Part shown: positions 16,047-64,000 of the stretch, piece after piece
How positions within the stretch are numbered: position 1 is the first letter of the stretch
Layout of the letters: each line of letters begins with the position of its first letter
DNA from: Pocillopora verrucosa
Taxonomy: Eukaryota; Cnidaria; Anthozoa; Scleractinia; Pocilloporidae
Length of the DNA: 64,000 nucleotides
NCBI RefSeq assembly: GCF_036669915.1
Contig: NC_089312.1
Coordinates: forward strand, 31,318,330 to 31,382,329
Reading direction: 5' to 3'
Notes under the pieces: model-generated
What the model saw: the letters and a program-made list of their open reading frames with translations, nothing else
Told to the model about the DNA's origin: nothing
Databases searched by the model: none
Made by a program: the position numbers and the translations under genes

Positions 16047-16239
16047 GAGTCGAGATGTTACATGAAAGTAGGTAGAAACTTATTATTAACACAATATGTA
16101 TCGTCCCTTTCTCCTAAAAGGTGGAGGTCGATTTTCCGGAGCACGCAAAGCTCCTTGAAATTCAAGTCATGTGAAAGTTATAGCGACAGTTTCAGAGTAA
16201 ACAAGATAACGTTTATTAAAAAGGCCTAACAAAAAGTCT

Positions 16240-16311
16240 TGGTTGTTAGCTCAGTTGGCAAAGCACTGCACCGTAATCCGCAGAGGTCCGGGGTCCAATC
16301 CCTTACAGGCC
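16240..16311 (+). repeat. tRNA-like sequence, unit 1
   Basis: A perfect A box (TAGCTCAGTTGGC) and a B-box-like GGGTCCAATCC lie at tRNA spacing. An extra C in the anticodon region compared with unit 3, and a mismatched acceptor stem, argue against a working tRNA. Confidence 0.45.
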
Positions 16312-17545
16312 TGACATTTTTTCAGTCCTTAGTTTTCACTACTGCCTTTTAAACAGTAAAAACCACTAGAACCCTACTTAAAAGTATGGTATCAGTATTG
16401 CGAAGATGCTTCCAAGTTCATTTCTAAAACCGCAGTTTGCATATATGATTTCATATATTGTACAGGTGTTTTAACAGACGTAGTTTTGCTTTAGTACCAA
16501 ACAGTTTAATTCATGTATATGTCCTTCGTACATCACATCACATCATCTCCGGATTCAACACGAGTAGCTGTATAGCTAATTTCTCCTCTCCGAGAAAGAA
16601 AGAATAAAAAAACAGAAAATAAAATAAACCGTATATTATATACAGTACATTAACTGCTATCTACATAAGTAACAATTGCATTGATGTTCGGATTAAATTT
16701 GGCATATTTAGTTCTGAAATCATTCAAGGACGTTAATGACCTTAGTGTCCTCTGGTAGTTTGGTTTCGACCTGTTTGTAGGAGTTTATGGTAAATTATCT
16801 CACAAAATCGATGGCTTGTGTCATCAGCAAACGTTATTGAATTACCAAAAATGTAGACAACTAGGTAACTCGGTGTAGTGCCACAAGACAGGTAGAGTCA
16901 GCCTCAGTATACTCCTAAGGCCGTTGATATTTTTGAAGCTCTGATAAATGTCTCGTAACCGTAACGGTTTTATTTCACTTAAACTGTTTAACTGGGGTAT
17001 TAGGATTTAAGGTGTTGCGCTGATTTACCCGATGTTTTTATACGGTTTTTTCGCAGTGGAGTCGCCGGACCTGATGTCGTTTCTTGTAGTGTTAAGTTAA
17101 TCGGCAGACTAATCGTCACCACGGAAACCACAATCCAAATGATCCTTGAAACTGATTTTGTTAATCCCTTTCAGGTTTGTGAGAAATGTGGAATTTAGGG
17201 AATGATTCTCATACTTTGTCGAGTATAGTCAACCTGCTAGGTGTCACTGACCCTGCATAACTTCTTAAGTCAATTTTTTTCTTTTTTCCCACGGAGTTTA
17301 TTGTGATCGCCTTACTGATCTTTACAAAGGATATTTAAGTTATTTTTTTTGTTCAGTCCCGTTTCCGTGAGACACGAAAACGCGAGACCCAAAAAATTCC
17401 ATAAAAGGATAAGACAACCGCTTGAAAAGATAAAATACACGATTATGACGCTTGCAAGTTTCTGCAGTTGTTTGTACATGTTTGTGTTGCTTTTACAACC
17501 TTTTATCTTTATAAACTACTTGGGGGGTGAGACAGTGCATCCCAT

Positions 17546-19119
17546 ATGAAGTCCTTACAAATAACTAATAATTTGCTGCTCGTGCCGCTTTTTTTGCGTT
17601 GATTTCAAAAATTAGCAACAACGAGTACCGCTCCGATGGACGCACAAAAATATCTGGCAAACTGCTTGAAACAATGTAAGAGAGTAATGGCAGTGGCGTG
17701 TTTATAGAAGAAATTTTTTTCCTTTGTGAAAACGTTTACTGCCTTTGCCACTCATGAGAAAAAGAGTGTTTATTCGCAAATTCCGTGAAATGGACAGATA
17801 TTTATCATATATTATTTTTCTAAACCTCAGGAGACTGGAACTGGAATTTCAAAACACACTTTTCGACATTTGCATCCTTCTTTTCTTATCTCCGCCCGTT
17901 TACTTTCCCTCCCCCCTCACTTCTCTCTCTTTCACGCTTTGCCTGTTATTTTCAAAGTACTATAATGAACCTCTCGTCACTTTACCTTTACACTACACAC
18001 TTTAATTTCAACAGCTAAGGATTGTGCTGAGCTGTACAAATGCGGAGAAAGAATCAGCGGCGTTTACTCAATAGACCCTGATGGTTTAGGTCCCTTTAAA
18101 GTTTATTGTGACCAGACAACAGCAGGTGGGGGATGGACGGTGTTTCAGAGGAGACTGGATGGTTGCTTGGATTTTTAACCGCGATTGGGCTGACTACAAG
18201 CATGGCTTCGGTAATTTTCTTATTGGTGAATATTGGCTCGGATTGGACAAGATTTATTGTCTGACACAAAAGGAGACGGAAAACAGACTTCGAGTAGATC
18301 TGGGAAGTTAAGAGCAATGCGGTCTACGCTGAATATTCGTGGTTCAAGATCGGAGACGAGAAAGCCATGTACCAGCTAAACCTTGGAAATATTGCAAGTA
18401 AGTCAATTAGCTTCCTTAGGGCAATTATGTCAACTGCAGCCATGACAACATCCTCAATAACTAGCATTTACGGCACATGCATGTCTCCCAAACGACTGTA
18501 TTGCGCTTCTTTATTTAAAAAGAGCTTCATACTTCAACATTCGTCGAGATACGAACAATCGGGAAGTCTATAGAGCACGAAAGATGCGTAAGAGTCGTTC
18601 GATTCGAAGCTAAGTGCAACTCGAGCTTCATCATCAATATCGTCATTCTCGAACTTATATCGATATTATAACTATACCATCACTTAATGATTAAATGGTA
18701 TCATAATTTGTTCTTGATATCATTATCGTCGTCTTTTTCATCCTAATTACTATTATGTTATTATTATTATTTTAATATTATTACTATCAATATCATCGTT
18801 GTTGTTGTTGTTGTTGGTAGATGCGACTGTCCATGACTCTCTCGAGTATCATAATGGCTCGTCGTCGTTTGGTACCCGGGATAAAGTTAATGAACACTGT
18901 GTCCATAATATATCGGGAGGCTGGTGGTACGTCAAAAGTACTGAGTGTGCTGTGTTGTCAAATCTCAATGGTGCTCATCAGCATTGTGGAAAGGAGAACA
19001 AGACCACAGCCAGGGTCTGGGCCGAGCAAAAGATTCATTGGGGTGACTTAGCTGTCACTGCAGGAGAAACCGCTCCAACGACATCTGAAATGAAAATTAA
19101 AACTGTGGACTTTCCTTAA
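17546..19119 (+). pseudogene. FReD gene L1 (frameshifted)
   Basis: This has the same three-exon structure as L3/L4: exon 1 17,546-17,675, exon 2 18,015-18,397, exon 3 18,821-19,119. Exon 1 keeps MKSLQITNNLLLV but has extra bases and a stop right after. Exon 2 has one extra T at the LDF codons and lacks two bases after LRVDLG (net frameshift). Exon 3 is open and has one extra serine codon (GSSSFGT). Splice sites survive (the first donor is AAT/GTAAGA). Exon 1 lies inside a block rich in single-base insertions, so part of the damage may be assembly error; the exon 2 changes lie outside the worst part. Exons share diagnostic bases with L2. Confidence 0.75.
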
Positions 19120-19560
19120 CTCTTTCTTTCATACATGTAATGGTGCACTTACATCTATTCGATTACTTCATGAACAAAATGCGATCATCAGACCAATTGT
19201 TTATATCAGTTGCAAGGAGAAATCTAGCAATAAAATGTTTAGAACACAATCCGTTTAGTTATTTGCTTTGTGTAACTTAATATAGATAAACCCAAAGAAA
19301 ATATTAGTACGCTTGTCAAGGATACTGTTTTTATTGCACCAGATTTTACGAGAAATATATATATCACATGGCCCGGCGTCTGTGTAAACTGCTTGCGTGG
19401 AAAGCTGGCAGGATGAGTGCGGAATGGTTTATCAATTTTTGTCCTAGTTTTGCTTTTGTATGTTTGGCTTTATCGTAGAGTTAGTCAGATGGGACCCTAC
19501 AAGGGTATAATTTTTAGAGCGAATATGTCAGATTATGTATAATTTTATGGTTGCTCTAAG

Positions 19561-19932
19561 GCCATAACTGACACGAAGCTTAAAATATGCAAAGTGTTGG
19601 GTATAGAATCAAATCTGGAAAGCCTTAGCTGTTTCGAAAGTGTGCTGCATGACGAACGGATGGTTTGACTTGATATTAAATACATAAGAATCGAGATTGA
19701 CAGTTACACAGACAACGAAAACGGAAAAAGAAGGATGAAAGAAAACTGCAACAGTGCAAATCCCTATGAAGAAAATTTACTTCGTTTCAGAGAAGGCAGT
19801 GTCCAGTATTGCGGACGTGCTCTGAAACGGCGGAAGTCTGCGTTTTGTCTGTGCTTTAGCGAGTCGGATATCAAGATTATGATACTTGATTATCTCCCCT
19901 GCAGATCACTAAACCCAAACGAGTTTGATTGA
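19561..19932 (+). pseudogene. Decayed ORF of unknown origin, unit 1
   Basis: Same frame as 25,123-25,473 and 58,395-58,718, starting AITDTKLKI. Here GATCGA has become GTTTGA, giving a stop in the DERM(D/V) region, after which MKENCNSANPYEENLLRFRE remains open. I do not recognise it; it could be an exon of an old gene or part of a retroelement. Confidence 0.35.
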
Positions 19933-19962
19933 ATTCAATTGATCGGGGGTTAGATAAGATCT

Positions 19963-19995
<33 letters not shown>

Positions 19996-21274
19996 ACAAC
20001 TGTGAAGACAAGTTCTTAGTCAAAGCGGAAAACTTCGCCAGATAGATTACTTTTGCGTGGGTATTATTTCATGCTTCATTCTTTCTTGCCGATTATACAT
20101 GAAGATAGTAGTTACATCCTCTTCATAAGACGTTTGACTAACTATTGGCATAAAAATAACAGTATTATTTCCTCTAGGCACACACGTTAATTGCACCAAC
20201 ATTTAAGTTTCAAGTGTGCGTTTGCCACTGGTAACACTCAAGATCTGGTTGGCGCGAATATCCTCGAATTCAGTTAACATTTGCGTAAATATTTCACTAA
20301 TAACCGAAAGTTTCACCCCATAGCTCTCTACAACCACTGTGAGTTTCCCCTTGGACGAAAACTTGTTCTTTCCCACTTTAACATTTCCCTCTTACAAATT
20401 TCATGTCCTTTTCTTTTGGTTGAACTTTAATAAATCGATTGCTTACCTGGTGTTATGTTTATTGTAAAAGCAACGCTGCCTCTATCCACAACACGGGATA
20501 GAACATAGGAAATCTGTTGGTTTTAAAGCGATGTAATTTTTAAAATCCACAATCCTTTTTAAAACAAAAAATCCATTAGTGCACAAATATTAGTTTATTT
20601 TCTTTGTGTGATGATTAGCTTTCAATACTACTTATCAAAAAAGCACTTCTCCTCTTAACTTTCCACCCTAACTAAATACACTTAGCGATCTTCAGGAGAT
20701 TCTATAGAGAATATCTAGGACTCGTTTAAACATGGTGCATCACAAAGCGATTTGAGTTATTGAAACTTTATGTGAATATAAGCGAAAAAATTGTGTCAAA
20801 CCGAACGAAACGCGGAGAAAAATTGCCAATTAGCAACAATATAACACTGACCAACGACAGAAGTATCGATATTTTGTTTTCAGAAAGAAGAGCTTCATAG
20901 CTTAGGGGGTTAAATACTTTAAATTCAAGGTTCATTTAATTATAGAATTTCGTGTCTAGGTATTTACTTTATGGTCGGGGAGGATTGCGAGATCATTACA
21001 ATCCAAACAGAACAGCGTCCAGTACTCGAGCCCACAAGACCTCCTGCTATAGTACGGCGAGCTGTTTACGGTATTCAAAGGTGCTTCCATGAGTGAATTT
21101 TTTTCGAAAAAGGGGAATAGGTCGTAATTGAACGTCACCGCAACCGGGTTCCAGTGGTTACCCAACCTTAAGAACATTCGTAAGATTTTGAACATCCCTC
21201 AAAACTAACCGCACTTAAGAGCAATATTTGAGGAGCCACCTTGTCATCATGACGCAAAGTATCCCTCTTAGAGT

Positions 21275-21505
21275 TTAACTTTGAAGACCGTACATGTGGG
21301 ACTTGGGAAAGAGACCCTGGTGATGGGAAGTACAAAACACACACGCTGGGGAGGCTGATGGTATGTAAAAATCAATGGTGTTCATCCGCGTAGAGGAACA
21401 GAAACTCCCTTGAGCCACATCTACACATGGGACTTTTTAGGAAACACTCCCAGCGCAAGCGCTCCTGCAAACACTGAATTGACCAGTGGATTTCAATTAA
21501 TTCGG
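21275..21505 (+). pseudogene. Relic FReD C-terminal exon, unit 1
   Basis: GGGAGGCTGATGGTATG and TCAATGGTGTTCATCCGCG align with the L-gene exon 3 stretch for GGWWY and SNLNGAHQ, and the following frame gives NGVHPRRGTETP and later APANT, parallel to NGAHQHCGKENK and APTT. Spacing between blocks is partly lost here but better kept in unit 2. No matching exon 2 is evident upstream. This is an older, degenerate FReD duplicate. Confidence 0.5.
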
Positions 21506-21581
21506 TCCAAAAATAACAAGAAAGATAATAATACGAGCCATGATAAATAGCGTAGACACTGATCTCTTGGCTGAGCGAAGA

Positions 21582-21612
<31 letters not shown>

Positions 21613-22896
21613 GATTACAATCGTAGGAAGACTGCCTTCCAAGAGGGATCATTTTTGCTTTGTTTTAATTTGTCTTTCTTTAGAACACGACCTATTCTGA
21701 AACAAGGCGTAATTGAGCTACAATTATGGCAGGGTATATCGAAGAAAATCAGCCTTTATTACTTAAAACGAGCTCCGATTTATTTCTCATTTACGAATGG
21801 TTTCATTTTCATACATCCCCATGGTAAAAGATTTAAGTAAAACAGATATCACAGTCAGGTTATAACTGGTAGGCACGACATTATTCCTTACCATTGTCTC
21901 CTGGTGTTTCATAATTGTTTAGGGCTACATAAAAACAGACATGATTTTGAGTTGAAAAAAACGTCCTTTTAAGAGTACAGTTTGTGAAAGTACCTCTGGT
22001 CATTGACAAAAAAAAGTCATTTACAGTTGGAATAAATACATGTAGAAAAGAGCTTTATAAGAGTTACTTATTTCTGTATGGTTTGATGAAATCTGCAGCA
22101 AAGACCTAAATTAACTCAGTTTGTGGCCCACCGTTTATTTTCGTGTGATGCTTTTGTGTACCTTTAATCATGTGGTGGACAATAGGCGGACAGCTGCTGC
22201 TTTTTTCGTAATTTTTTCGTCGAACAAATTCCCTGATTACGGTTCAGAGAATGATCTGACTGTTTCAGAGTATTTAAATTCCCTTTTATACTACACACTG
22301 CTATTTGTTTCAGTTCACACATGAACTTAAGAAGTCTCCTAACCCAAGCGTAACTCCTCTACAACATTTTTTCTGACAACAGTCACGCAATTGATTTATA
22401 AGCTGAGAGAAGAGCAAGGCACCTTTGTTACAGTCAAATAATACAACTGTTCTAAAAGAATGATTAACCACAAAAGCTACCAATCTAAGCCTTAACGATA
22501 CATCAAATGAAATCCGATAAGTGAAAACTGTCAGAGAAAGATAGGACACAACTGCATAAATTTGTCTAGAGAAGAAAATTTTCAATTAAATGACAGTGCA
22601 TATTTTGTCTCGGAAAAATCCTTGCTTTACTTTCCTTGGGTGGTATGAACATAAACCGCAAGTACAGGAGGCCTAATCTCGTATAAATTTTGTAACATTT
22701 GAGTCGAGAGGTTACATAAAAGTAGGTAGAAACTTATTATTAACACAAGATGTATCGTCCCTTTCTCCTAAAAGGTGGAGGTCTATTTCCTGAGCACGCA
22801 AAGCTCCTTGAAAGTTAAGTCATGTGAAGGTTTTAGCGACATTTTTTTCAGAGTAAACAGGGATAACATAGTATTAAAAAGGCCTAAAAAAATTCT

Positions 22897-22957
22897 TGGT
22901 TGTTAGCTCAGTTAGCAAAGCACTGCGCCGTCATCGCAGAGGTCATGGGGTCAAATC
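22897..22957 (+). repeat. tRNA-like sequence, unit 2 (truncated)
   Basis: The A box is TAGCTCAGTTAGC. The copy stops in the B box (GGGTCAAATC) at the deletion that joins it directly to the L2 promoter region. Confidence 0.45.
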
Positions 22958-22977
22958 AAAGAAACCGCTCGAAAAGA

Positions 22978-22985
22978 TATAAATA
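22978..22985 (+). promoter_or_regulatory. TATA box of L2
   Basis: TATAAATA lies 110 bp upstream of the L2 ATG. It is identical in L3 and L4; in L1 it reads GATAAAATA, possibly a sequencing error. Confidence 0.55.
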
Positions 22986-23087
22986 CACGATTATGACCTT
23001 GCAGTTTCTGCAGTTGTTTGTACATGTTGTGTTGCTTTACAACCTGTATCTTTATAAACTACTTGGAGTGAGCCAGTGCATCCCATA

Positions 23088-24635
23088 ATGAAGTCCTTAC
23101 AAATAACTAATAATTTGCTGCTCGTGACTCTTTTTGCGTTGATTCAAAAATTAGCAACAACGAGTACCGCTCCGATGGACCACAAAAATAGACCTGGAAA
23201 CTGCTTGAAACAAGGTAAGAGGGTAAGGTAGTGGCTTTTTATAGAGGGAAAACTTTTTTCCCTTTGTGTGAAAACGTTTAATGCCTTTGCCACTCATGAG
23301 AAAAAGAGGTTTATTCGCAAATTCCGTGAAATGGACAGATATTTATCATATATTTTTATTTTTCTAAACCTCAGAGACTGGAACGGGAATTTAAAACACA
23401 CTTTTCGACATTGCATCCTTCTTTTTCCTATCTCCGCCCGTTTACTTTCCCTCCCCCCTCACTTCTCTCTCTTTCACGCTTTGCCTGTTATTTTCAAAGT
23501 ACTATAATGAACCTCTCGTCACTTTACCTTTACACTACACACTTTAATTTCAAACAGCTAAGGATTGTGCTGAGCTGTACAAATGCGGAGAAAGAATCAG
23601 CGGCGTTTACTCAATAGACCCTGATGGTTTAGGTCCCTTTAAAGTTTATTGTGACCAGACAACAGCAGGTGGGGGATGGACGGTGTTTCAGAGGAGACTG
23701 GATGGTTGCTTGGATTTTAACCGCGATTGGGCTGACTACAAGCATGGCTTCGGTAATTTTCTTATTGGTGAATATTGGCTCGGATTGGACAAGATTTATC
23801 GTCTGACACAAAAGGAGACGGAAAACAGACTTCGAGTAGATCTGGGAAGAGTTAAGAGCAATGCGGTCTACGCTGAATATTCGTGGTTCAAGATCGGAGA
23901 CGAGAAAGCCATGTACCAGCTAAACCTTGGAAATATTGCAAGTAAGTCAATTAGCTTCCTTAGGGCAATTATGTCAACTGCAGCCATGACAACATCCTCA
24001 ATAACTAGCATTTACGGCACATGCATGTCTCCCAAACGACTGTATTGCGCTTCTTTATTTAAAAAGAGCTTCATACTTCAACATTCGTCGAGATACGAAC
24101 AAATCGGGAAGTCTATAGAGCACGAAAGATGCGTAAGAGTCGTTCGATTCGAAGCTAAGTGCAACTCGAGCTTCATCATCAATATCGTCATTCTCGAACT
24201 TATATCGATATTAAATGGTATCATAATTTGTTCTTGATATCATTATCGTCGTCTTTTTCATCCTAATTACTATTATGTTATTATTATTACTTTAATATTA
24301 TTACAATCAATATCATCGTTGTTGTTGTTATTGTTGGTAGATGCGACTGTCCATGACTCTCTCGAGTATCATAATGGCTCGTCGTTTGGTACCCGGGATA
24401 AAGTTAATGAACACTGTGTCCATAATATATCGGAGGCTGGTGGTACGTCAAAAGTACTGAGTGTGCTGTGTTGTCAAATCTCAATGGTGCTTATCAGCAT
24501 TGTGGAAAGGAGAACAAGACCACAGCCAGGGTCTGGGCCGAGCAAAAGATTCATTGGGGTGACTTAGCTGTCACTGCAGGAGAAACCGCTCCAACGACAT
24601 CTGAAATGAAAATTAAAACTGTGGACTTTCCTTAA
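23088..24635 (+). pseudogene. FReD gene L2 (one-base deletion in exon 3)
   Basis: Exon 1 (23,088-23,214) encodes the signal peptide MKSLQITNNLLLVTLFALIQ; exon 2 (23,558-23,941) encodes the N-terminal FReD half from AKDCAELYKCGERISGVYS to YQLNLGNIA; exon 3 (24,341-24,635) the C-terminal half. All introns are phase 1 with GTAAG donors. Exon 3 is 295 nt instead of 296: CGGGAGG has become CGGAGG, so the frame is lost just before GGWWY and the domain's C-terminal third is scrambled. Otherwise it is as complete as L3 and L4. One base in a G run could be an assembly error. Confidence 0.8.
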
Positions 24636-25122
24636 CTCTTTCTTTCATACATGTAATGGTGCACTTACATCTATTCGATTACTTCATAAACAAAAAATGC
24701 GATCATCAGACCAATTGTTTATATCAGTTGCAAGGAGAAATCTAGCAATAAAATGTTTAGAGCACAATCCGTTTAGTTATTTGCTTTGTGTAACTTAATA
24801 TAGATAAACCCAAAGAAAAATATTAGTACGCTTGTCAAGGATACTGTTATTTGCTTTTTTTATTGCACCAGATTTTACGAGAAATATTTATATCACATGG
24901 CCCGGCATCTGTGTAAACTGCTTGCGTGGAAAGCTGGCAGGATGAGTGCGGAATGGTTTATCAAACTAATTGCATTCAATTAAAGAAAAGCATGCTATTT
25001 TTGTCCTAGTTTTGCTTTTGTATGTTTGGCTTTATCATAGAATTAGTCAGATGGAACCCTACAAGGGTATAATTTTAAGAGCGAATATGTCAGATTATGT
25101 ATAATTTTATGATTTCTCTAAG

Positions 25123-25473
25123 GCCATAACTGACACGAAGCTTAAAATATGCAAAGAGCTGGGTATATAATCAAATCTGGATAGCCTTAGCTGTTTCGAA
25201 AGTGTGCTGCATGACGAACGGATGGATCGACTTGATATTGAATACATAATAATCGAGATTGACAGTTACACAGACAACGAAAACGGGAAAAGAAGGATGA
25301 AAGAAAACTGCAACAGTGCAAATCCCTATGAAGAAAATTTACTTCGTTTCAGAGAAGGCAGTGTCCAGTATTGCGGACGTGCTCTGAAACGGCGGAAGTC
25401 TGCGTTTTGTCTGTGCTTTAGCGAGTCGGATATCAAGATTATGATACTTGATTTCTCCCCTGCAGATCACTGA
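25123..25473 (+). pseudogene. Decayed ORF of unknown origin, unit 2
   Basis: Aligned with the open frame in unit 3, starting AITDTKLKI. Here GAA has become TAA early (LGI-stop-SNL), after which the frame is open for 105 codons through MKENCNSANPYEENLL and KRRKSAFCLCFSESDI. No domain recognised. Confidence 0.35.
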
Positions 25474-26679
25474 AACGAGTTCGATTGAGTTCAATTGATC
25501 GGGCGTTAGATAGGATCTTATTGCTTTTTTTGTTTTTTTTTTGACAACTGTGAAGACAAGTTCTTAGTCAAAGCGGAAAACTTCGCCAGATAAGATTACT
25601 TTTGCGTGGGTATTATTTCATGCTTCATTCTTTCTTGCCGATTATACATGAAGATAGTAGTTACATCCTCTTCATAAGACGTTTGACTAATTATTGGCAT
25701 AAAAATAACAGTATTATTTCCTCTAAGCACACGCGTTAATTACACCAACATTTAAGTTTCAAGTGTGCGTTTGCCTCTGGCAACACTCAAGATCTGGTTG
25801 GCACGAATATCCTCGAGTTCAGTTAACATTTGCGTAAATATTTCACTAATAACCGAAAGTTTCACCCCATAGCTCTCTACAACCACTGTGAGTTTCCCCT
25901 TGGACGAAAACTAGTTCTTTCCCACTTAAACATTTCCCTCTTACAAATTTCACATCCTTTTCTTTTGGTCGAACTTTAATAAATCGATTGCTTACCTGGT
26001 GTTATGTTTATTGTAAAAGCAACGCTGCCTCTATCCACAACACGAGATCGAACATAGGAAATCTGTTGGTTTAAAGCGATGTAATTTTTAAAATCCACAA
26101 TCCTTTTTTAAAACAAAAAAATCCACTAGTGCACAAATATTAGTTTATTTTTTTTGTGTGATGATTAGCTTTCAATACTACTTATCAAAAAAGCTCTTCT
26201 CCTCTTAATTTTCTCCCCTAACTAAATACACTTAGCGGTCTTCAGGAGATTCTATAGAGAATATCTAAGACTCGTTAAAACATGGTGCATCACAAAGCGA
26301 TTTGAGTTATTGAAACTTTATGTGAATATAAGGGAAAAAATTATGTCAAACCGAACAAAACGCGGAGAAAAATTGCCAATTAGCAACAATACAACACTGA
26401 CCAACGACAGAAGTATCGATATTTGTTTTCAGAAAGAAGAGCTTTATAGCTTAGGGGGTTAAATACTTTGAATTCAAGGTTCATTTAATTATAGAATTTC
26501 GTGTCTAGGTATTTACTCTATGGTCGGGGAGGATTGCGAGATCATTACAATTCAAACAGAACAGCGTCCAGTACTCGAGCCCAGAAGACCTCCTGCTATA
26601 CTACGGCGAGCTGTTTACGGTATTCAAAGGTGCTTCCATGAGTGAAATTTTTCGAAAAAGGGGAATAGGTCGTAATTGA

Positions 26680-29600: not shown

Positions 29601-30395
29601 TTTGCAGGTGCCTGAAGTTGAGTCGGTCAGTGAAACACGTGCTTCAGAAGGAGAGAGGCTGAGTGGCAATCAAAGTCAAGAGGCTGTAGATGAAATTGAA
29701 GACCACGAGGTTGATGCTGATGCTCGCACTGAAGAGTCAGTTACACGACTAAAGCTATTCACGTTAAGAGTCATTACCTAATCGCTTTTTTGCGAGCTTC
29801 AAAAGTGTTTTAACTGAACCAAGCTGCTGCTAAAACTTAAAAGATCTGAGTGCTTACTCGGTTGCTATTCATTTCTTTCTCTCACAGGAGGTAGAAATAG
29901 CCACAGCTGCTCTTGGGCTTTGCGAGGTGGACTGTGACACAGATAGTGATGATTCAGCTTTTGGCTCGGACCTTGATGAATAGCCTTCACTCTTGATGAA
30001 TGGACTACAACCCAAGTTACCAAACATCTTTTTTGAAAATCAAATAAATTCGCAATGATAAGCCAATGAAAATTCTGTTGTTGCCATTCTCCCTCCCTCT
30101 CCCCCTACCAACTGACCATTTTCATTCAGTAATTTACTTTTTAAAGAGAATTTTAGTGAGCGCCAGCATTACCTAGGAAACTGTTTCCTTGCTTCCAGAA
30201 ACGCTGGAAATGGCGTTTCTGAGTATTCTATTTTAAAAATTTCATGGGGGAGCATGCCCCCAGACCCCCCTAGGTGCTTGCGCTCGCTTACGCTTACGCT
30301 TGCGCTCGCGAGGCGCCTTACGGCGCCAAGAAAACATTCACGTCCGGTGCTTTCAGAAGTATGTCCGCTACTTTACAAAACAGTTGAAAACCCTG
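26680..30395 (+). mobile_element. hAT-type DNA transposon inserted in FReD unit 2
   Basis: Terminal inverted repeats CAGGGTTTTCA and TGAAAACCCTG bound 3,716 bp. The flanking 5-bp direct repeat ATTGA (26,675-26,679 and 30,396-30,400) is present once at the empty site in unit 1 (GTCGTAATTGAACGTC near 21,122) and unit 3. The motif CACGTCCGGT recurs near both ends, and a GC-rich block (about 30,273-30,330, GCTTGCGCTCGCTTACGC) precedes the right end. It carries a decayed transposase. Most hAT elements make 8-bp target duplications, so the 5 bp here marks a particular subgroup. Confidence 0.9.
27038..29983 (+). pseudogene. hAT transposase, KIAA1586/ZNF862-like, decayed
   Basis: A likely exon 1 (27,038-27,086) reads MKRISEFFVPTAKRKQ and ends at a GTAAGT donor. 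The core frame 27,748-28,299 has the hAT RNase-H-like signature: GILTDEVTDISLTQQL, then SFVSDGASVMTGARNGVAKL and SFHCLAHKLALA. A TAA follows at DYIAHC. The next pieces, in shifted frames, are KKLKKACRTRWLSLDKSV (28,365-28,640), MRELCSLMNRYTVALH (28,817-29,041) and the hATC dimerisation part NCWPERGGSAIKRIKTRMRS (to 29,615). Two acidic tail exons end DSAFGSDLDE at 29,983. At least four stops or frame changes, and no visible N-terminal BED/TTF finger, mean it is inactive. Confidence 0.85.
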
Positions 30396-53917: not shown

Positions 53918-54995
53918 CTGAAATTAAAAACTTGTTAGAAGTTTCATGAGCTGAGTGAGCCATGCACGTGCTACACGGAATAATCGAAAAAAAAAAAAAA
54001 AAGAAAAGAGGTTAGGGGAGAGGAGATAAAATAAAATCGTGCTTTAGCCGGCGTTTTTTTTTAAGCTCAAGAGCATTGGTGGGTCGTTAATTCCCCTTAG
54101 GAGGTTATCATAAATCAAACAATACAGTCCTAGTTTTTTGTACGGAGGACGCCCATAACAATGTTCTATTTTAACATTCATATTATGGCGAATCAATCTG
54201 ACTGATATCACCGTTGAACGATTTAATTAACAATAAGTTGTCATCGCCAGAAAAGTGGATCCAAAATCGGTGGCCTCGTCAAATGAGCTGTTAATCCTCT
54301 AGCCGCATCGAGACGTGTTTGACCCTCAAAACCGGTCAGGGTTCCAAATTAAAAAAATTAACAAATATGGCCTCAAAACCGTCTTATATTGCTCTTTATC
54401 GAATGGATATATGAAAGGTTTGTTACGCTTTCATATAATTAGAAAACAGAAATTTGAAGTCGCATCTGCCCAGATCATTGACTCAATAACATACAATACG
54501 GCGTCGCAAAAAGCAACTAAACAAAATTCGCAAAACCGAACCGAAATTTGTTTGTTTCATGCCAGGAAAAACATTGAAAAAACATCGGAAATGTATGATC
54601 ATAACTAGGCAATTGTGCATTCTAAGAAAGTGTTACTCCACGAAAATGTTGATTCGACTTTTCTGGCAATGAGTTACGAAATGAGCAATGTTCCTTTCAT
54701 TGTGCTTCATTGATTTGTGGAGATTTCATTATCTGAGATCTCGCCTTTAACCACAAAGTACACATTTAGTACAGTAAATTGTTTCGCGAGTGGATGTGTG
54801 TTCTATCGTCCCAAAGAACATTTACCTGCAACGTTCAAATTCTCATATTAAGTCCTGCTGATGCAATACGGATTGTGGTTTACGGAGATAAGTTACGGAA
54901 ACGCCCAGGAAAAGGCACAGCAGCTTCCTAATTAACAGTGGTGACACGAATTAATTTTTTCGATATAAGAAAGTGAAGGGATAAAACATAAATTT
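53918..54995. other. Non-coding stretch left of FReD unit 3
   Basis: Counterpart of 14,940-16,046, with fewer bases. No gene recognised. Confidence 0.45.
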
Positions 54996-55188
54996 GAGTC
55001 GAGAGGTTACATGAAAGTAGGTAGAAACTTATTATTAACACAAGATGTATCGTCCCTTTCTCCTAAAAGGTGGAGGTCTATTTCCTGAGCACGCAAAGCT
55101 CCTTGAAAGTTAAGTCATGTGAAAGTTTTAGCGACATTTTCAGAGTAAACAAGATAACGTAGTATTAAAAAGGCCTAAAAAAAATTCT

Positions 55189-55260
55189 TGGTTGTTAGCT
55201 CAGTTGGCAAAGCACTGCACCGTAATCGCAGAGGTCATGGGGTCAAATCCCGTACAGGCC
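55189..55260 (+). repeat. tRNA-like sequence with Pol III-type terminator, unit 3
   Basis: 72 nt with a perfect A box (TAGCTCAGTTGGC), B-box-like GGGTCAAATCC, a 4-bp anticodon stem (CTGC/GCAG) and loop CCGTAAT. T6 follows at once (GAAATTTTTTCAGG) within a GGCCTGAAA/TTTTCAGGCC hairpin. Position 33 is C rather than U, and the acceptor stem has two mismatches. Better read as tRNA-derived (SINE head or pseudogene) than as a decoding tRNA. Confidence 0.5.
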
Positions 55261-56337
55261 TGAAATTTTTTCAGGCCTTATTTTCACTACTGCTTTTAAA
55301 CAGTAAAAAACACTAGAACACTACTTAAAAGTAGTGTACAGTATTGCGAAGATGCTTCCAAGTTCATTTCTAAAACCGCAGTTTGCATATATGATTTCAT
55401 ATATTTACAGGTGTTTAACAGACGGAGTTTTGCTTTAGGACCAAACAGTTTATTAGATGTATATGTCCTTCGTACATCACATCACATCATCTCGGATTCA
55501 CAAGAGTAGCTGTATAGCTAATTTCTCCGAGAAAGAAAGAATAAAAAACAGAAAATAAAAATAAAACCGTATATTATATACAGTACATTAACTGCTATCT
55601 ACATAAGTAACAATTGCATTGATGTTCGGATTAAATTTGGCATATTTTAGTTCTGAAATCATTCAAGGACGTTAATGACCTTAGGTCCTCTGTTAGTTTG
55701 TTCGACATGTTTGTAGGAGTTTATGGTAAATTATCTACAAAATCGATGCTGGTGTCATCAGCAAACGTTATTGATTACCAAAAATGTAGACAACTAGGTA
55801 ACTCGGGTACGTGCAACAAGACATGTAGAGTCAGCCTAGTATACGCTAAGCCGTTGATATTTTGAAGCTCTGATAAATGGCTCGTAACCGTAACGGTTTT
55901 ATTCACTTAAACTGTTAACTGGGGTATTAGGATTTAAGGTGTTGCGCTGTTACCGAGTTTTTTATACGGTTTTTCGCAGTGGAGTCTCAGGACCTATATG
56001 TCGTTTCTTGTATTGTGAGTTAATCGCAGACTAATCGTCACCATGGAAACCACATCCAAATGATCCGTGAAACTGATTTGTAATCCCTTTCAGATTTGTG
56101 AGAAATGTGGATTTTAGGGAATGATTCTATACTTTGTCGAGTATATTCAACCTGCTACGTGTCACTGACCCATTCATAACTTCTTAATTCAATTTTTTTC
56201 CCACGGAGTTTATTGTGATCGCCTTACTGATCTTTACAAAAGGATATTTAAGTTATTTATTTGTTCAAGTCCCTTTTCCGTGAGACACGCCGATGACCCA
56301 AAAATTCCAGAAAAGGATAAGAAACCGCTTGAAAAGA
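55261..56337. other. L3 upstream region
   Basis: About 1.1 kb between the tRNA-like sequence and the TATA box, nearly identical to unit 4 (61,056-62,132). No gene. It has a short tandem ACATCACATCACATC near 55,476. Confidence 0.5.
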
Positions 56338-56345
56338 TATAAATA
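56338..56345 (+). promoter_or_regulatory. TATA box of L3
   Basis: TATAAATA, 110 bp upstream of the ATG; identical in sequence and distance in L2 and L4. Confidence 0.55.
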
Positions 56346-56447
56346 CACGATTATGACCTTGCAGTTTCTGCAGTTGTTTGTACATGTTGTGTTGCTTTAC
56401 AACCTGTATCTTTATAAACTACTTGGAGTGAGCCAGTGCATCCCATA

Positions 56448-58018
56448 ATGAAGTCCTTACAAATAACTAATAATTTGCTGCTCGTGACTCTTTTTGCGTT
56501 GATTCAAAAATTAGCAACAACGAGTACCGCTCCGATGGACCACAAAAATAGACCTGGAAACTGCTTGAAACAAGGTAAGAGAGTAAGGCAGTGGCTTGTT
56601 ATACAGAGAAAATTTTTTTTCCTTTGTGAAAACGTTTAATGCCTTTGCCACTCATGAGAAAAAAGAGGTTTATTCGCAAATTCCGTGAAATGGACAGATA
56701 TTTATCATATATTTTATTTTTCTAAACCTCAGAGACTGGAACGGGAATTTAAAACACACTTTTCGACATTGCATCCTTCTTTTCCTTATCTCCGCCCGTT
56801 TACTTTCCCTCCCCCCTCACTTCTCTCTCTTTCACGCTTTGCCTGTTATTTTCAAAATACTATAATGAACCTCTCGTCACTTTACCTTTACACTAAACAC
56901 TTTAATTTCAACAGCTAAGGATTGTGCTGAGCTGTACAAATGCGGAGAAAGAATCAACGGCGTTTACTCAATAGACCCTGATGGTTTAGGTCCCTTTAAA
57001 GTGTATTGTGACCAGACAACAGAAGGTGGGGGATGGACAGTGTTTCAGAGGAGACTGGATGGTTGCTTGGATTTTAACCGCGATTGGGCTGACTACAAGC
57101 ATGGCTTCGGTAATTTTCTTATTGGTGAATATTGGCTCGGATTGGACAAGATTTATCGTCTGACGCAAAAGGAGACGGAAAACAGACTTCGAGTAGATCT
57201 GGGAAGAGTTAAGAGCAATGCGGTCTACGCTGAATATTCGTGGTTCAAGATCGGAGACGAGAAAGCCATGTACCAGCTAAACCTTGGAAATATTGCAAGT
57301 AAGTCAATTAGCTTCCTTAGGGCAATTATGTCAACTGCAGCCATGACAACATCCTCAATAACTAGCATTTACGGAACATGCATGTCTCCTAAACGGCTGT
57401 ATTGCGCTTCTTTATTTAAAAAGAGCTTCATACTTCAACATTCGTCGAGATACGAACCAATCGGGAAGTCTATAGAGCACGAAAGATGCGTAAGAGTCGT
57501 TCGATTCGAAGCTAAGTGCAACTCGAGCTTCATCATCAATATCGTCATTCTCGAACTTATATCGATATTAATAACTATACCATCACTTAATGATTAAATG
57601 ATATCATAATTTGTTCTTGATATCATAATGTCGTCTTCTTCATCCTAATTACTATTATGTTATTATTATTATTTTAATATTATTACTATCAATATCATCG
57701 TTGTTGTTGTTGTTGTTGATAGATGCGACTGTCCATGACTCTCTCGAGTATCATAATGGCTCGTCGTTTGGTACCCGGGATAAAGTTAATGAAAACTGTG
57801 TCCATAATATATCGGGAGGCTGGTGGTACGTCAAAAGTACTGAGTGTGCTGTGTTGTCAAATCTCAATGGTGCTCATCAGCATTGTGGAAAGGAGAACAA
57901 GACCACAGCCAGGGTCTGGGCCGAGCAAAAGATCCATTGGGGTGACTTAGCTGTCACTGCAGGAGAAACCGCTCCAACGACATCTGAAATGAAAATTAAA
58001 ACTGTGGACTTTCCTTAA
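56448..58018 (+). CDS. FReD gene L3, secreted fibrinogen-related protein (complete)
   Basis: Three exons, 56,448-56,574, 56,915-57,298 and 57,723-58,018, joined at phase-1 introns, give 268 residues. Residues 1-28 are a signal peptide (MKSLQITNNLLLVTLFALIQ), 29-42 a short linker with C39, and 43-268 a FReD of normal size. There is no collagen or coiled-coil region, unlike ficolins. Landmarks: [10 protein letters not shown] (80-89), [11 protein letters not shown] (99-109), YWLGLD (115-120), YHNGSSFGTRDK (180-191), GGWWY (202-206), NLNG, and EMKIKTVDF at the end. C46-C74 and C196-C212 match the usual disulfides; C52, C93 and C225 are extra. D190 of the calcium loop remains but the second Asp is V192. 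Sequons at N171, N182 and N229. Likely an extracellular lectin-like binder; ligand unknown. Confidence 0.9.
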
Positions 58019-58394
58019 CTCTTTCTTTCATACATGTAATGGTGCACTTACATCTATTCGATTACTTCATGAACAAAATGCGATCATCAGACCAATTGTT
58101 TATATCAGTTGCAAGGAGAAATGTAGCAATAAAATGTTTAGAAAACAATCTGTTCAGTTATTTGCTTTGTGTAACTTAATATAAATAAACCCAAAGAAAA
58201 ATATTAGTACGCTTGTTAAGGATACTGTTTAAAGAATTAAATTAACAACAATTAAAGAAAAGCATGCTATTTTTGTCCTAGTTTTGCTTTTGTATGTTTG
58301 GCTTTATCGTAGAATTAGTCAGATGGAACCCTACAAGGGTATAATTTTTAGAGCGAATATGTCAGATTATGTATAATTTTATGGTTGCTCTAAG

Positions 58395-58718
58395 GCCATA
58401 ACTGACACGAAGCTTAAAATATGGAAAGAACTGGGTATAGAATCAAATCTGGATAGCCTTAGCTGTTTCGAAAGTGTGCTGCATGACGAACGGATGGATC
58501 GACTTGATATTGAAGACATAAGAATCGAGATTGACAGTTACACAGACAACGAAAACGGAAAAAGAAGGATGAAAGAAAACTGCAACAGTGCAAATCCCTA
58601 TGAAGAAAATTTACTTCGTTTCAGAGAAGGCAGTGTCCAGTATTGCGGACGTGCTCTGAAACGGCGGAAGTCTGCGTTTTGTCTGTGCAGTTTAGCGAGT
58701 CGGATATCAAGATTATGA
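58395..58718 (+). pseudogene. Conserved ORF of unknown origin, unit 3
   Basis: Best copy of this frame: AITDTKLKIWKELGIESNLD, then DIEDIRIEIDSYTDNENGKR, NSANPYEENLLRFREGSVQY and KRRKSAFCLC. Two extra bases (TGCAGTTTAGC) then shift the frame and end it at SRISRL. It lies about 380 bp downstream of L3 in the same orientation. No start codon or acceptor is convincing and no domain is recognised. Confidence 0.35.
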
Positions 58719-60791
58719 TACTTGATTATCTCCCCTGCAGATCACTAAACCCAAACGAGTTCGATTGAATTCAATTGATCGGGTGTTAGATAAGATCTTA
58801 TTGCTTTTTTTTTTTTTTTTTTTTTGACAACTGTGAAGACAAGTTCTTAGTCAAAGCGGAAAACTTCGCCAGATAAGATTACTTTTGCGTGGGTATTATT
58901 GCATGTTTATTCTTTCTTGCCGATTATACATGAAGATAGTAGTTACATCCTCTTCATAAGACGTTTGACTAACTATTGGCATAAAAATAACAGTATTATT
59001 TCCTCTAAGCACACTCGTTAGTTGCACCAACATTTAAGTTTCAAGTGTGCGTTTGCCTCTGGTAACACTCAAGATCTGGTTGGCACAAATATCCTCGAAT
59101 TCAGTTAACATTTGCGTAAATATTTCACTAATAACCGAAAGTTTCACCCCATAGCTCTCTACAACCACTGTGAGTTTCTCCTCGGACGAAAACTAGTTCT
59201 TTCCCACTTTAACATTTCCCTCTTACAAATTTCATGTCCTTTTCTTTTGGTCGAACTTTAATAAATCGATTGCTTACCTGGTGTTATGTTTATTGTAAAA
59301 GCAACGCTGCCTCTATCCACAACATGGGATAGAACATAGGAAATCTGTTGGTTTAAAGCGATGTAATTTTTAAAATCCACAATCCTTTTTTAAAACAAAA
59401 AAATCCATTAGTGCACAAATATTAGTTTATTTTCTTTGTGTGATGATTAGCTTTCAATACTACTTTTCAAAAAAGCACTTCTCCTCTTAACTTTCCCCCC
59501 TAACTAAATACACTTAGCGGTCTTCAGGAGATTCTATAGAGAATATCTAAGACTCGTTAAAACATGGTGCATCACAAAGCGATTTGAGTTATTGAAACTT
59601 TATGTGAATATAAGCGAAAAAGTTGTGTCAAACCGAACAAAACGCGGAGAAAAATTGCCAATTAGCAACAATACAACACTGACCAATGACAGAAGTATCG
59701 ATATTTGTTTTCAGAAAGAAGAGCTTTATAGCTTAGGGGGTTAAATACTTTGAATTCAAGGTTCATTTAATTATGGAATTTCGTGTCTAGGTATTTACTT
59801 TATGGTCGGGGAGGATTGCGAGATCATTACAATTCAAACAGAACAGAGTCCAGTACTCGAGCCCACAAGACCTCCTGCTATACTACGGCGAGCTGTTTAC
59901 GGTATTCAAAGGTGCTTCCATGAGTGAAATTTTCCGAAAAAGGAGAATAGGTCGTAATTGAACGTCACTGCATTCCTTACCATTGTCTCCTGGTGTTTCA
60001 TAATTGTTTAGGGCTACATAAAAACAGACATGATTTTGAGCTGAAAAAAACGTCCTTTTAAGAGTACAGTTTGTGAAAGTACCTCTGGTCATTGACAAAA
60101 AAAAGTCAATTTACAGTTCGAAGAAATACTTGTAGAAAAAGAGCTTGATAAGAGTTACTTATTTCTGTATGGTTTGATGAAATCTGCAGCAAAGATCTAA
60201 ATTAACTCAGTTTGTGGCCCACCGTTTATTTTTGTGTGATGCTTTTGTGTACCTTTAATCATGTGGTGGACAATAGGCGGACAGCTGCTGTTTTTTTCGT
60301 AATTTTTTCGTCGAACAAATTCCCTGATTACGGTTCAGAGAATGATCTGACTGTTTCAGAGTATTTAAATTCCCTTTTATACTACACACTGCTATTTGTT
60401 TCAGTTCACACATGAACTTAAGAAGTCTCCTAACCCAAGCGTAACTCCTCTACAACATTTCTGACAACAGTCATGCAATTGATTTATAAGCTGAGAGAAG
60501 AGCAAGGCACCTTTGTTACAGTCAAATAATACAACTGTTCTAAAAGAATGATTAACCACAAAAGCTACCAATCTAAGCCTTAACGATACATCAAATGAAA
60601 CCCGATAAGTGAAAATTGTCGGAGAAAGATAGGACACAACTGCATAAATTTGTCTAGAGAAGAAAAATTTTCAATTAAATGACAGTGCATATTTTGTCTC
60701 GGAATAAAATCCTTGCTTTACTTTCCTTGGGTGGTATGAACATAAACCGCAAGTAAAGGAGGCCTAATCTCGTATAAATTTTGTAACATTT
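58719..60791. other. 3' part of unit 3
   Basis: No gene recognised. Holds a poly-T tract at 58,806-58,825, the empty hAT target (near 59,955), and a conserved block (60,212-60,415) that is open in all copies but has no domain. Confidence 0.45.
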
Positions 60792-60983
60792 GAGTCGAGA
60801 GGTTACATAAAAGTAGGTAGAAACTTATTATTAACACAAGATGTATCGTCCCTTTCTCCTAAAAGGTGGAGGTCTATTTCCTGAGCACGCAAAGCTCCTT
60901 GAAAGTTAAGTCATGTGAAAGTTTTAGCGACACTTTCAGAATAAACAGGATAACGTAGAATTAAAAAGGCCTAAAAAAATTCT

Positions 60984-61055
60984 TAGTTGTTAGCTCAGCT
61001 AGCAAAGCACTGCGCCGTCATCGCAGAGGTCATGGGGTCAAATCCCGTACAGGCC
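60984..61055 (+). repeat. tRNA-like sequence, unit 4
   Basis: 72 nt; A box TAGCTCAGCTAGC, loop CCGTCAT, B-box-like GGGTCAAATCC, followed by T6 within a hairpin. Shares TAGC and GCGCCG variants with unit 2. Confidence 0.45.
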
Positions 61056-62132
61056 TGAAATTTTTTCAGGCCTTATTTTCACTACTGCTTTTAAACAGTA
61101 AAAAACAATAGAACACTACTTAAAAGTAGTGTACAGTATTGCGAAGATGCTTCCAAGTTCATTTCTAAAACCGCAGTTCGCATATATGATTTCATATATT
61201 TACAGGTGTTTAACAGACGGAGTTTTGCTTTAGGACCAAACAGTTTATTAGATGTATATGTCCTTCGTACATCACATCACATCATCTCGGATTCACAAGA
61301 GTAGCTGTATAGCTAATTTCTCCGAGAAAGAAAGAATAAAAATCAGAAAATAAAGATAAAATCGTATATTATATACAGTACATTAACTACTATCTACATA
61401 AGTAACAATTGCATTGATGTTCGGATGAAATTTGGCATATTTTAGTTCTGAAATCATTCAAGGACGTTAATGACCTTAGGTCCTCTGTTTGTTTGTTCGA
61501 CATGTTTGTAGGAGTTTATGGTAAATTATCTGTAAAATCGATGCTGGTGTCATCAGCAAACGTTATTGATTACCAAAAATGTAGACAACTAGGTTACTCG
61601 GGTACGTGCAACAAGACATGTAGAGTCAGCCTAGTATACGCTAAGCCGTTGATATTTTGAAGCTCTGATAAATGGCTCGTAACCGTAACGGTTTTATTCA
61701 CTTAAACTGTTAACTGGGGTATTAGGATTTAAGGTGTTGCGCTGTTACCGAGTTTTTTATACGGTTTTTCGCAGTGGAGTCTCAGGACCTATATGTCGCT
61801 TCTTGTATTGTGAGCTAATCTCAGACTAATCGTCACCATGGAAACCACACCCTAATGATCCGTGAAACTGATTTGTAATCTCTTTCAGATTTGTGAGAAA
61901 TGTGGATTTTAGGGAATGATTCTATACTTCGTCGAGTATATTCAACCTGCTACGTGTCACTGACCCAGTCATAACTTCTTAATTCAATTTTTTTCCCACG
62001 GAGTTTATTGTGATCGCCTTACTGATCTTTACAAAAGGATATTTAAGTTATTTATTTGTTCAAGTCCCTTTTTCGTGAGACACGCCGATGACCCAAAAAT
62101 TCCAGAAAAGGATAAGAAACCGCTTGAAAAGA
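61056..62132. other. L4 upstream region
   Basis: Counterpart of 55,261-56,337; no gene. Confidence 0.5.
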
Positions 62133-62140
62133 TATAAATA
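62133..62140 (+). promoter_or_regulatory. TATA box of L4
   Basis: TATAAATA, 110 bp upstream of the L4 ATG. Confidence 0.55.
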
Positions 62141-62242
62141 CACGATTATGACCTTGCAGTTTCTGCAGTTGTTTGTACATGTTGTGTTGCTTTACAACCT
62201 GTATCTTTATAAACTACTTGGAGTGAGCCAGTGCATCCCATA

Positions 62243-63812
62243 ATGAAGTCCTTACAAATAACTAATAATTTGCTGCTCGTGACTCTTTTTGCGTTGATTC
62301 AAAAATTAGCAACAACGAGTACCGCTCCGATGGACCACAAAAATAGACCTGGAAACTGCTTGAAACAAGGTAAGAGGGTAAGGTAGTGGCTTTTTACAGA
62401 GAGAAAACTTTTTTCCCTTGTGAAAACGTTTAATGCCTTTGCCACTCATGAGAAAAAGAGGTTTATTCGCAAATTCCGTGAAATGGACAGATATTTATCA
62501 TATATTTTATTTTTCTAAACCTCAGAGACTGGAACGGGAATTTAAAACACACTTTTCGACATTGCATCCTTCTTTTCCTTATCTCCGCCCGTTTACTTTC
62601 CCTCCCCCCTCACTTCTCTCTCTTTCACGCTTTGCCTGTTATTTTCAAAGTACTATAATGAACCTCTCGTCACTTTACCTTTACACTACACACTTTAATT
62701 TCAACAGCTAAGGATTGTGCTGAGCTGTACAAATGCGGAGAAAGAATCAACGGCGTTTACTCAATAGACCCTGATGGTTTAGGTCCCTTTAAAGTGTATT
62801 GTGACCAGACAACAGAAGGTGGGGGATGGACGGTGTTTCAGAGGAGACTGGGTGGTTGCTTGGATTTTAACCGCGATTGGGCTGACTACAAGCATGGCTT
62901 CGGTAATTTTCTTATTGGTGAATATTGGCTCGGATTGGACAAGATTTATCGTCTGACGCAAAAGGAGACGGAAAACAGACTTCGAGTAGATCTGGGAAGA
63001 GTTAAGAGCAATGCGGTCTATGCTGAATATTCGTGGTTCAAGATCGGAGACGAGAAAGCCATGTACCAGCTAAACCTTGGAAATATTGCAAGTAAGTCAA
63101 TTAGCTTCCTTAGGGCAATTATGTCAACTGCAGCCATGACAACATCCTCAATAACTAGCATTTACGGCACATGCATGTCTCCCAAACGACTGCATTGCGC
63201 TTCTTTATTTAAAAAGAGCTTCATACTTCAACATTCGTCGAGATACGAACCAATCGGGAAGTCTATAGAGCACGAAAGATGCGTAAGAGTCGTTCGATTC
63301 GAAGCTAAGTGCGACTCGAGCTTCATCATCAATATCGTTATTCTCGAACTTATATCGATATTAATAACTATACCATCACTTAATGATTAAATGGTATCAT
63401 AATTTGTTCTTGATATCATTATCGTCGTCTTCTTCATCCTAATTACTATTATGTTATTGTTATTATTTTAATATTATTACTATCAATATCATCGTTGTTG
63501 TTGTTATTGTTGGTAGATGCGACTGTCCATGACTCTCTCGAGTATCATAATGGCTCGTCGTTTGGTACCCGGGATAAAGTTAATGAAAACTGCGTCCATA
63601 ATATATCGGGAGGCTGGTGGTACGTCAAAAGTACTGAGTGTGCTGTGTTGTCAAATCTCAATGGTGCTCATCAGCATTGTGGAAAGGAGAACAAGACCAC
63701 AGCCAGGGTCTGGGCCGAGCAAAAGATCCATTGGGGTGACTTAGCTGTCACTGCAGGAGAAACCGCTCCAACGACATCTGAAATGAAAATTAAAACTGTG
63801 GACTTTCCTTAA
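62243..63812 (+). CDS. FReD gene L4, secreted fibrinogen-related protein (complete)
   Basis: Exons 62,243-62,369, 62,708-63,091 and 63,517-63,812; 268 residues, the same plan as L3: signal peptide 1-28, linker, FReD 43-268. The only amino-acid difference from L3 that I see in the mature domain is RRLGGCLDF for RRLDGCLDF (residue 91). The other exon differences noticed are silent, for example TAT for TAC at Y147 and TGC for TGT at C196. The second calcium-loop Asp is again Val. All splice sites are intact. Near-identity of two tandem genes over exons and introns fits very recent duplication or gene conversion. Role as for L3: probable extracellular lectin-like recognition, ligand unknown. Confidence 0.9.
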
Positions 63813-64000
63813 CTCTTTCTTTCATACATGTAGTGGTGCACTTACATCTATTCGATTACTTCATGAACAAAATGCGATCATCAGACCAATTGTTTATATC
63901 AGTTGCAAGGAGAGATCTAGCAATAAAATGTTTAGAACACAATCCGTTTAGTTATTTGCTTTGTGTAACTTAATATAGATAAACCCAAAGAAAAATATTA

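What the first reader, a model, noticed from the sequence alone, without database searches (positions are those of the whole stretch)
16047..64000. FReD exons are homogenised within each tandem pair while their flanks keep the older relationship
Upstream and downstream flanks group unit 1 with 3 and 2 with 4. Examples: CATGAAAG against CATAAAAG at the unit start; TTGGCAAAGCACTGCACCG against TAGCAAAGCACTGCGCCG in the tRNA-like part; ACTAAACCCAAACG after the unknown ORF in 1 and 3 only. The exons group 1 with 2 and 3 with 4: S57 against N57, A79 against E79, GTT against GTG at V72, ACA against ACG at T126, H195 against N195, ATT against ATC at I241. Flanks follow the 39-kb duplication; exons follow physical neighbours. 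This is the signature of interlocus gene conversion in a recognition-protein family.
Basis: partly seen in the sequence, partly recalled or inferred. Interest (0 to 1): 0.8.

Follow-up and report, generated by a model that had tools for sequence, protein, structure and literature searches.

The report
Coral FReD conversion beside false duplicate
In a coral genome, neighbouring copies of a fibrinogen-domain recognition gene appear to have copied their binding-domain half onto each other, but one of the two 39-kb copies on which this was first seen is probably an assembly error, so the pattern had to be shown again with cleaner copies.

Summary
Copy A (units 1, 2) is very probably a false, chimeric duplicate: up to 17,884 it copies B (units 3, 4); from 17,885 it copies a third locus C (units 5, 6; window coordinates 196,621-219,051). 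The join ends a 3.4-kb stretch of sequencing-type errors about 130 bp before the unit 1 FReD exon. A mirror-image error stretch lies at the A|B junction.

Retested without A (units 3, 4 against 5, 6), the signal survives: of 49 informative sites 41 support 35|46 and 8 support 34|56, the 8 lying within nine consecutive sites, 56,957-57,934 (exact P 7e-7). AU tests favour opposite trees for tract and flanks. The tract, 1.0-1.7 kb, covers both FReD exons and their intron. Derived sites shared within each pair imply conversion in both loci; support is strong for C, weaker for B. Whether B and C are alleles or paralogues is open. The organism is probably Pocillopora; a published coral analysis calls gene conversion very rare.

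The parts
1..14489 (.). Copy A, left part: near-identical duplicate of copy B from 38,971 on; the duplicate begins 2,780 bases left of the window
   Evidence: 0-2 substitutions per 1,000 bases against B from 1 to 14,000; where C aligns it differs from A by 0.5-2.6% per kb
14490..17884 (.). Error-type tract at the end of copy A's left part; difference density rises to the right and stops at 17,884
   Evidence: against a B=C consensus 168 A-private mismatches (47 transitions, 121 transversions), 92 inserted and 11 deleted bases; some mismatch clusters are alignment shifts between an insertion and a deletion. In 14,501-18,000 C alone differs at 21 sites and B alone at 3
17885..36128 (.). Copy A, right part: near-identical to copy C (window coordinates 200,813-219,051); contains the unit 1 FReD exons and all of unit 2
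   Evidence: 28 substitutions in 18.2 kb against C, over 11,408 columns: private substitutions A 4, B 94, C 13; private 1-3 base indels A 32, B 9, C 4
36129..37600 (.). A|B seam and error-type start of copy B (36,165 onwards)
   Evidence: in the first 771 aligned columns 21 B-private substitutions and 16 B-private 1-3 base insertions (a pairwise alignment, gives 11 and 19); over 2.4 kb B-private transitions 6, transversions 20; sequence shown
16044..22696 (+). Unit 1 (chimera: 5' part from B, 3' part from C); signal-peptide exon 17,546-17,680 broken; exon a about 18,015-18,397 with two frameshifts, exon b about 18,821-19,119 (exon limits by offset from unit 3)
22697..31869 (+). Unit 2 (copy of unit 6 of locus C; lacks the 1.1-kb 5' segment); exons about 23,558-23,941 and 24,341-24,635 (by offset from unit 3), frameshift in exon b
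   Evidence: (99% to C1:31524156-31526143)
54992..60787 (+). Unit 3, intact: signal-peptide exon 56,448-56,579, exon a 56,915-57,298, exon b 57,723-58,018
60788..64000 (+). Unit 4, intact (runs past the window end): signal-peptide exon 62,243-62,374, exon a 62,708-63,091, exon b 63,517-63,812
56957..57934 (+). Minimum converted tract in unit 3 coordinates (maximum 56,615-58,308): exon a, intron, exon b; 8 of 9 informative sites group 3 with 4 and 5 with 6
62750..63728 (+). The same minimum tract in unit 4
55190..55261 (+). tRNA-like sequence at the unit 3 start (second copy 60,988-61,051 in unit 4); unconverted flank
   Evidence: Rfam RF00005, 33.9 and 33.0 bits (gathering 29); ARAGORN found none in the window

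Best explanation
Two things lie on top of each other. First (inferred from sequence, no reads seen): copy A is a false duplicate. An assembled piece of B type ends at 17,884 with an unpolished tail. A piece of C type (17,885-36,128) follows. A second B-type piece starts at 36,165 with an unpolished head and overlaps the first by about 20 kb. Second (shown by sequence, mechanism inferred): in the two clean loci B (units 3, 4) and C (units 5, 6), the gene half that encodes the FReD has been copied between the two neighbouring units by interlocus gene conversion, at least once in each locus and after B and C separated. The tract is 1.0-1.7 kb. It starts after 56,614, just past the signal-peptide exon, and ends no later than 58,308, past the stop codon. 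The flanks kept the older positional relationship. Probable mechanism (from established knowledge, not tested): repair of a break in one unit using the neighbour 5.8-6.6 kb away, on the sister or homologous chromosome, as template, without crossover.
For: A as false copy: A follows B up to 17,884 and C beyond it; errors private to A, with transversions and insertions in excess, rise to an abrupt stop; mirror-image error tract at the start of B; frameshifts in units 1 and 2 but in none of the FReD exons of units 3, 4, 5, 6. Conversion in the clean quartet: 49 informative sites, 41 of type 35|46 and 8 of type 34|56, the 8 within 9 consecutive sites (exact P 7.3e-7; thinned to 32 sites 1.8e-5); AU test, flanks (3,649 columns) p for 34|56 0.0005, tract (1,129 columns) p for 35|46 0.007; simulation without conversion, with branch lengths I chose, gives a mean of 0.09 such sites and at most 2 in 20,000 runs. 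Unit 5-6 distance 13/331 upstream, 4/953 in the tract, 63/1,693 downstream. Polarised with units 7 and 8: three sites derived in B (56,957; 57,023; 57,794), three in C (57,003; 57,165; 57,638), two undecided.
Against: No reads, depth or phasing were available. Units 3-4 differ at 15/978 in the tract against 17/978 for 3-5, so the B event is weaker and older than the C event; a Sawyer-type run test supports 5-6 (P 0.0005) but not 3-4 (P 0.57), while 3-5 (P 0.014) and 4-5 (P 0.015) also reach nominal values, uncorrected. One site inside the tract (57,712) supports 35|46. The three B-derived sites lie only in exons, with a more divergent intron between them (11/424 for 3-4). Around the signal-peptide exon (56,318-56,567) units 3, 4 and 6 are 0-0.4% apart and unit 5 is the odd one, so the left border rests on five sites at 56,582-56,614. 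The spacer gives only 2 informative sites. Thirteen sites in 11.4 kb where C alone differs from A and B show that A-right is not letter for letter C.
Confidence: 0.75

Rival explanations
1. Copy A is real: a true 39-kb tandem duplicate formed by unequal crossing-over, recombinant between B-type and C-type haplotypes, whose poor sequence only reflects weak polishing of repeats.
For: Diverged repeats (91-92%) lie at both ends of the block and could mediate unequal exchange. The contig shows no N at the seams; the one N run in the 304 kb joined (81,001-93,500) has round coordinates and looks like a withheld stretch.
Against: The errors are private to A although B and C, its near-identical partners, are clean there; they rise to an abrupt stop at the base where the affiliation changes; B has a mirror-image error head at the other junction.
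Confidence: 0.13
2. The within-pair grouping of the FReD half is itself an artefact: consensus calling or short-read polishing made units 3 and 4 (and 5 and 6) alike where they are most similar.
For: The locus has several seams; a third error tract lies in C at 282.07-287.0 kb.
Against: Unit 3- and unit 4-private differences remain interspersed in the tract (15 of 978); units 3 to 6 show few private short indels and, for 3 and 4, a transition excess (27:14 and 22:3), B and C also few; polishing should also blend B with C (inference).
Confidence: 0.1
3. No conversion: parallel substitutions under selection in both units of each pair.
For: The three B-derived shared changes are all amino-acid changes (S to N, A to E, H to N).
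Against: Of the 8 sites, 3 are synonymous and 2 intronic; parallel identical changes at 8 sites are not expected.
Confidence: 0.03

Closest known systems
Interlocus (ectopic) gene conversion and concerted evolution in tandem gene families
   Same: Short tract with a tree that conflicts with both flanks, between near neighbours in the same orientation, about 1 kb, coding and intron sequence alike
   Different: Nothing in principle; it is one more case, in a coral FReD cluster. [quoted passage not shown] I saw no report of FReD conversion in corals in the listings, which cover open-licence PMC papers only
FREP/FReD diversification in Biomphalaria glabrata
   Same: Fibrinogen-domain recognition genes; PMC7588048 (one passage seen) reports variants made by gene conversion and point mutation from germ-line source sequences
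   Different: There conversion adds variants within single snails; here it makes neighbouring genes alike in an assembled genome sequence. No IgSF domain was searched for here
False (heterotype/homotype) duplications in genome assemblies
   Same: Near-identical copies, other-haplotype-like sequence between overlapping contig ends, excess sequencing errors (PMC9516828, passages seen)
   Different: No gap between the copies here, although gaps are named as typical there; read depth could not be checked

Membership tests
Interlocus gene conversion | Tract whose tree conflicts with the flanks on both sides | tested here: met
   34|56 at 8 of 9 informative sites in the tract and 0 of 40 in the flanks
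Interlocus gene conversion | Reduced divergence between the partners in the tract | tested here: met
   Units 5-6: 13/331, 4/953, 63/1,693 (upstream, tract, downstream). Weaker for units 3-4: 7/331, 15/978, 54/1,699; run test not significant for 3-4
Interlocus gene conversion | Not produced by assembly or phasing error | tested here: inconclusive
False duplication in an assembly | Copy equals other assembled sequence apart from sequencing-type errors | tested here: met
   for copy A; 13 sites in 11.4 kb do not fit
False duplication in an assembly | Read depth at haploid level or below | not testable with these tools
   No reads held
Fibrinogen-related domain (FReD) proteins | Fibrinogen C-terminal globular domain | tested here: met
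   PF00147, 175.9 bits, cut-off 22 (unit 3); ficolins are the best-scoring solved structures (E 1e-41)
Ficolin-type FReD with calcium site | Calcium loop before the conserved cysteine | tested here: not met
   in the alignments to ficolins four loop residues are missing and the D-x-D is not kept; sequence alignment only, no structure

The most novel reading that the evidence does not exclude
Recurrent conversion, independently in two haplotypes or loci, swaps the FReD-coding half between tandem neighbours while upstream and downstream flanks stay separate, so that changes in the recognition domain (S to N, A to E, H to N) come to be shared by both genes: adaptive concerted evolution of a recognition domain in corals, against the published view that conversion is very rare there.
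Probability: 0.25. Interest if true: 0.6.

Novelty: new member of a known kind. Interest (0 to 1): 0.38.

Why it matters
It gives a concrete, testable case of gene conversion in a coral recognition gene cluster, where one published analysis calls conversion very rare. It also indicates that the assembly carries a false 39-kb copy with two apparently broken FReD genes, which would inflate gene counts, create false pseudogenes and mislead duplication dating in a gene family of interest for coral immunity.

Tried and rejected
The first four-way alignment misplaced unit 2 upstream of its 1.1-kb deletion; 7 of its 19 informative sites were dropped and the segments realigned separately. Hypermutation as the cause of the A-private tract was considered and rejected: transversions exceed transitions 121 to 47, insertions exceed deletions, and both stop at the base where the affiliation changes; it was not tested further. 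GC-biased conversion: all six polarised tract changes are G/C to A/T, so no sign of it. Allele or paralogue for B and C: C matches the main locus collinearly, mostly at 95-99% and at 85-88% near its left end, with transitions equal to or above transversions; a third error tract and seam lie at about 287.0 kb. A reported heterozygosity of 1.14% for Pocillopora cf. effusa (PMC10236652) fits alleles; but in the chaperonin family search (50 exon matches) I count by position 12 places and one extra exon match on C2, with no doubling of whole genes, so alternative haplotypes do not seem to be kept throughout this assembly (identities between places were not compared). I leave it at about 55:45 for alleles, a judgement. 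Papers: none was read in full; PMC10236652, PMC12314368, PMC9516828, PMC7588048 and PMC3908420 were seen by passages, others by search listing. PMC12314368 has no occurrence of 'gene conversion' in its main text. Literature searches.
Full report
Where it is. The window is C1:31,318,330-31,382,329 of a 353-Mb, 52-contig assembly without a name. The best-matching named protein is a Pocillopora verrucosa 'angiopoietin-related protein 7-like', 99% identical to the unit 3 FReD. The domain is PF00147 and the best-scoring solved structures are ficolins. All coordinates here are window coordinates, continued past both ends over 304 kb of joined sequence.

Layout. Copy A runs from -2,780 to 36,128 and holds units 1 and 2. 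Copy B runs from 36,165 to about 75,702 and holds units 3 and 4. A third locus C, with units 5 and 6, lies at 196,621-219,051 and has the 39-kb block only once. C's left flank matches the left flank of A and its right flank matches the right flank of B. More diverged units 7 and 8 lie at 115,585 and 249,062.

The observation. In the clean test two of the eight within-pair sites are intronic, so exons are not singled out.

Copy A is a mosaic. Against a B=C consensus, A carries 168 private mismatches between 14,490 and 17,884, of which 121 are transversions, and 92 inserted against 11 deleted bases; some mismatch clusters are only the shift between an insertion and a deletion. Beyond 17,884 A has no private substitution in the next 1,441 aligned columns and 4 in 11,408 further on. 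Left of the tract A equals B with 0-2 substitutions per kb from 1 to 14,000. Right of it A equals C with 28 substitutions in 18.2 kb, while B alone differs at 94 of the 11,408 columns. B in turn begins at 36,165 with an insertion-rich, transversion-biased stretch that decays over 0.8-1.5 kb. Units 1 and 2 are broken by frameshifts, and unit 1's signal-peptide exon also by a stop, whereas these exons of units 3, 4, 5 and 6 read through. I read this as two unmerged B-type contig ends with a C-type piece between them. Against this stand 13 sites in 11.4 kb where C alone differs from A and B.

Conversion without copy A. Units 3, 4, 5 and 6 were aligned in four homologous segments with 4,651 gap-free columns in all. 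Of 49 informative sites, 41 support 35|46: unit start 5 of 5; upstream of exon a 5 of 5; downstream 28 of 28; spacer 2 of 2; and one inside the tract. Eight support 34|56; all lie between 56,957 and 57,934, where the only other informative site is 57,712. The exact probability of such clustering is 7.3e-7, or 1.8e-5 after thinning to 32 sites. AU tests reject 34|56 for the flanks (p 0.0005) and 35|46 for the tract (p 0.007). Simulations without conversion, with branch lengths I set, gave at most 2 such sites. Seven of the 28 downstream sites lie at 59,962-59,970, next to the alignment end, and may be one event; thinning covers this. In the 1.1-kb segment that unit 6 lacks, unit 4 alone differs at 20 sites, unit 5 alone at 4 and unit 3 alone at none, which also groups 3 with 5.

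Number and age of events. With units 7 and 8 as outgroups, three of the eight sites are derived in B, three in C, two undecided. Derived states shared on both sides need at least one conversion in each locus after they separated. The C event is younger: units 5 and 6 differ at 4 of 953 sites in the tract, units 3 and 4 at 15 of 978. The run test supports the C event (P 0.0005) but not the B event (P 0.57), and gives nominal values for 3-5 and 4-5 as well; the B event therefore rests on three polarised sites. A P. verrucosa protein whose first 33 residues equal a reading frame upstream in unit 4 has unit 4's N at the first changed position but A and H at the other two. That fits A-to-E and H-to-N being recent, but the gene model could be fused, so it is weak.

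What the tract covers. The five unconverted sites at 56,582-56,614 lie just past the signal-peptide exon (56,448-56,579), and the tract ends no later than 58,308, past the stop codon. Around the signal-peptide exon itself units 3, 4 and 6 are nearly alike and unit 5 is the odd one, so that exon gives no site of its own. The FReD-coding half thus moves as a block. The three B-derived changes are all amino-acid changes. One (H to N) lies just before a conserved cysteine next to the ficolin calcium loop. In FIBCD1 a disulfide from this region joins the calcium site to the acetyl-binding site (PMC3908420, passages); that the cysteines correspond is my inference. Since this protein lacks four loop residues in the alignment, no functional claim is made.

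Limits. No reads were available. B and C may be alleles or paralogues; the conversion inference does not depend on which. C itself ends in a further error tract and seam near 287.0 kb, far from its units.

Verdict. Against a published statement that gene conversion is very rare in corals (PMC10236652, passages) the case is of moderate interest.

Noticed in passing
L033 and L034 (C1:31,600,400-31,613,400; window coordinates 282,071-295,071): Another insertion-rich, transversion-biased error tract up to about 287.0 kb with an abrupt change; the following 4.7 kb match main 155,030-159,753.
   Followed up: partly
C1:31,804,840-31,809,441; 31,941,039-31,945,636; 36,570,986-36,575,588: Three sets of diverged (81-89%) matches to the sequence at window coordinates 144,001-150,000, one of them about 22 kb from the end of contig C1.
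   Followed up: no
C2:5,085,369-5,085,461 and 5,116,873-5,116,965: One chaperonin exon matches twice, about 31 kb apart, possibly another small false duplicate.
   Followed up: no
7318-8874 and 46286-47842, strand -: 518-aa open frame in both A and B; the B copy matches THAP and DDE_Tnp_4.
   Followed up: partly
55190-55261 and 60988-61051: tRNA-like sequences at unit starts by Rfam (54,900-64,000 searched), none by ARAGORN in the window.
   Followed up: partly
39,041-39,315 and 38,327-38,576, strand -, against -30 to 347 and -642 to -394: A more diverged FReD gene on the minus strand at the block start; its exon matches fall into more pieces in B, near the A|B seam, than in A.
   Followed up: no
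   Followed up: no
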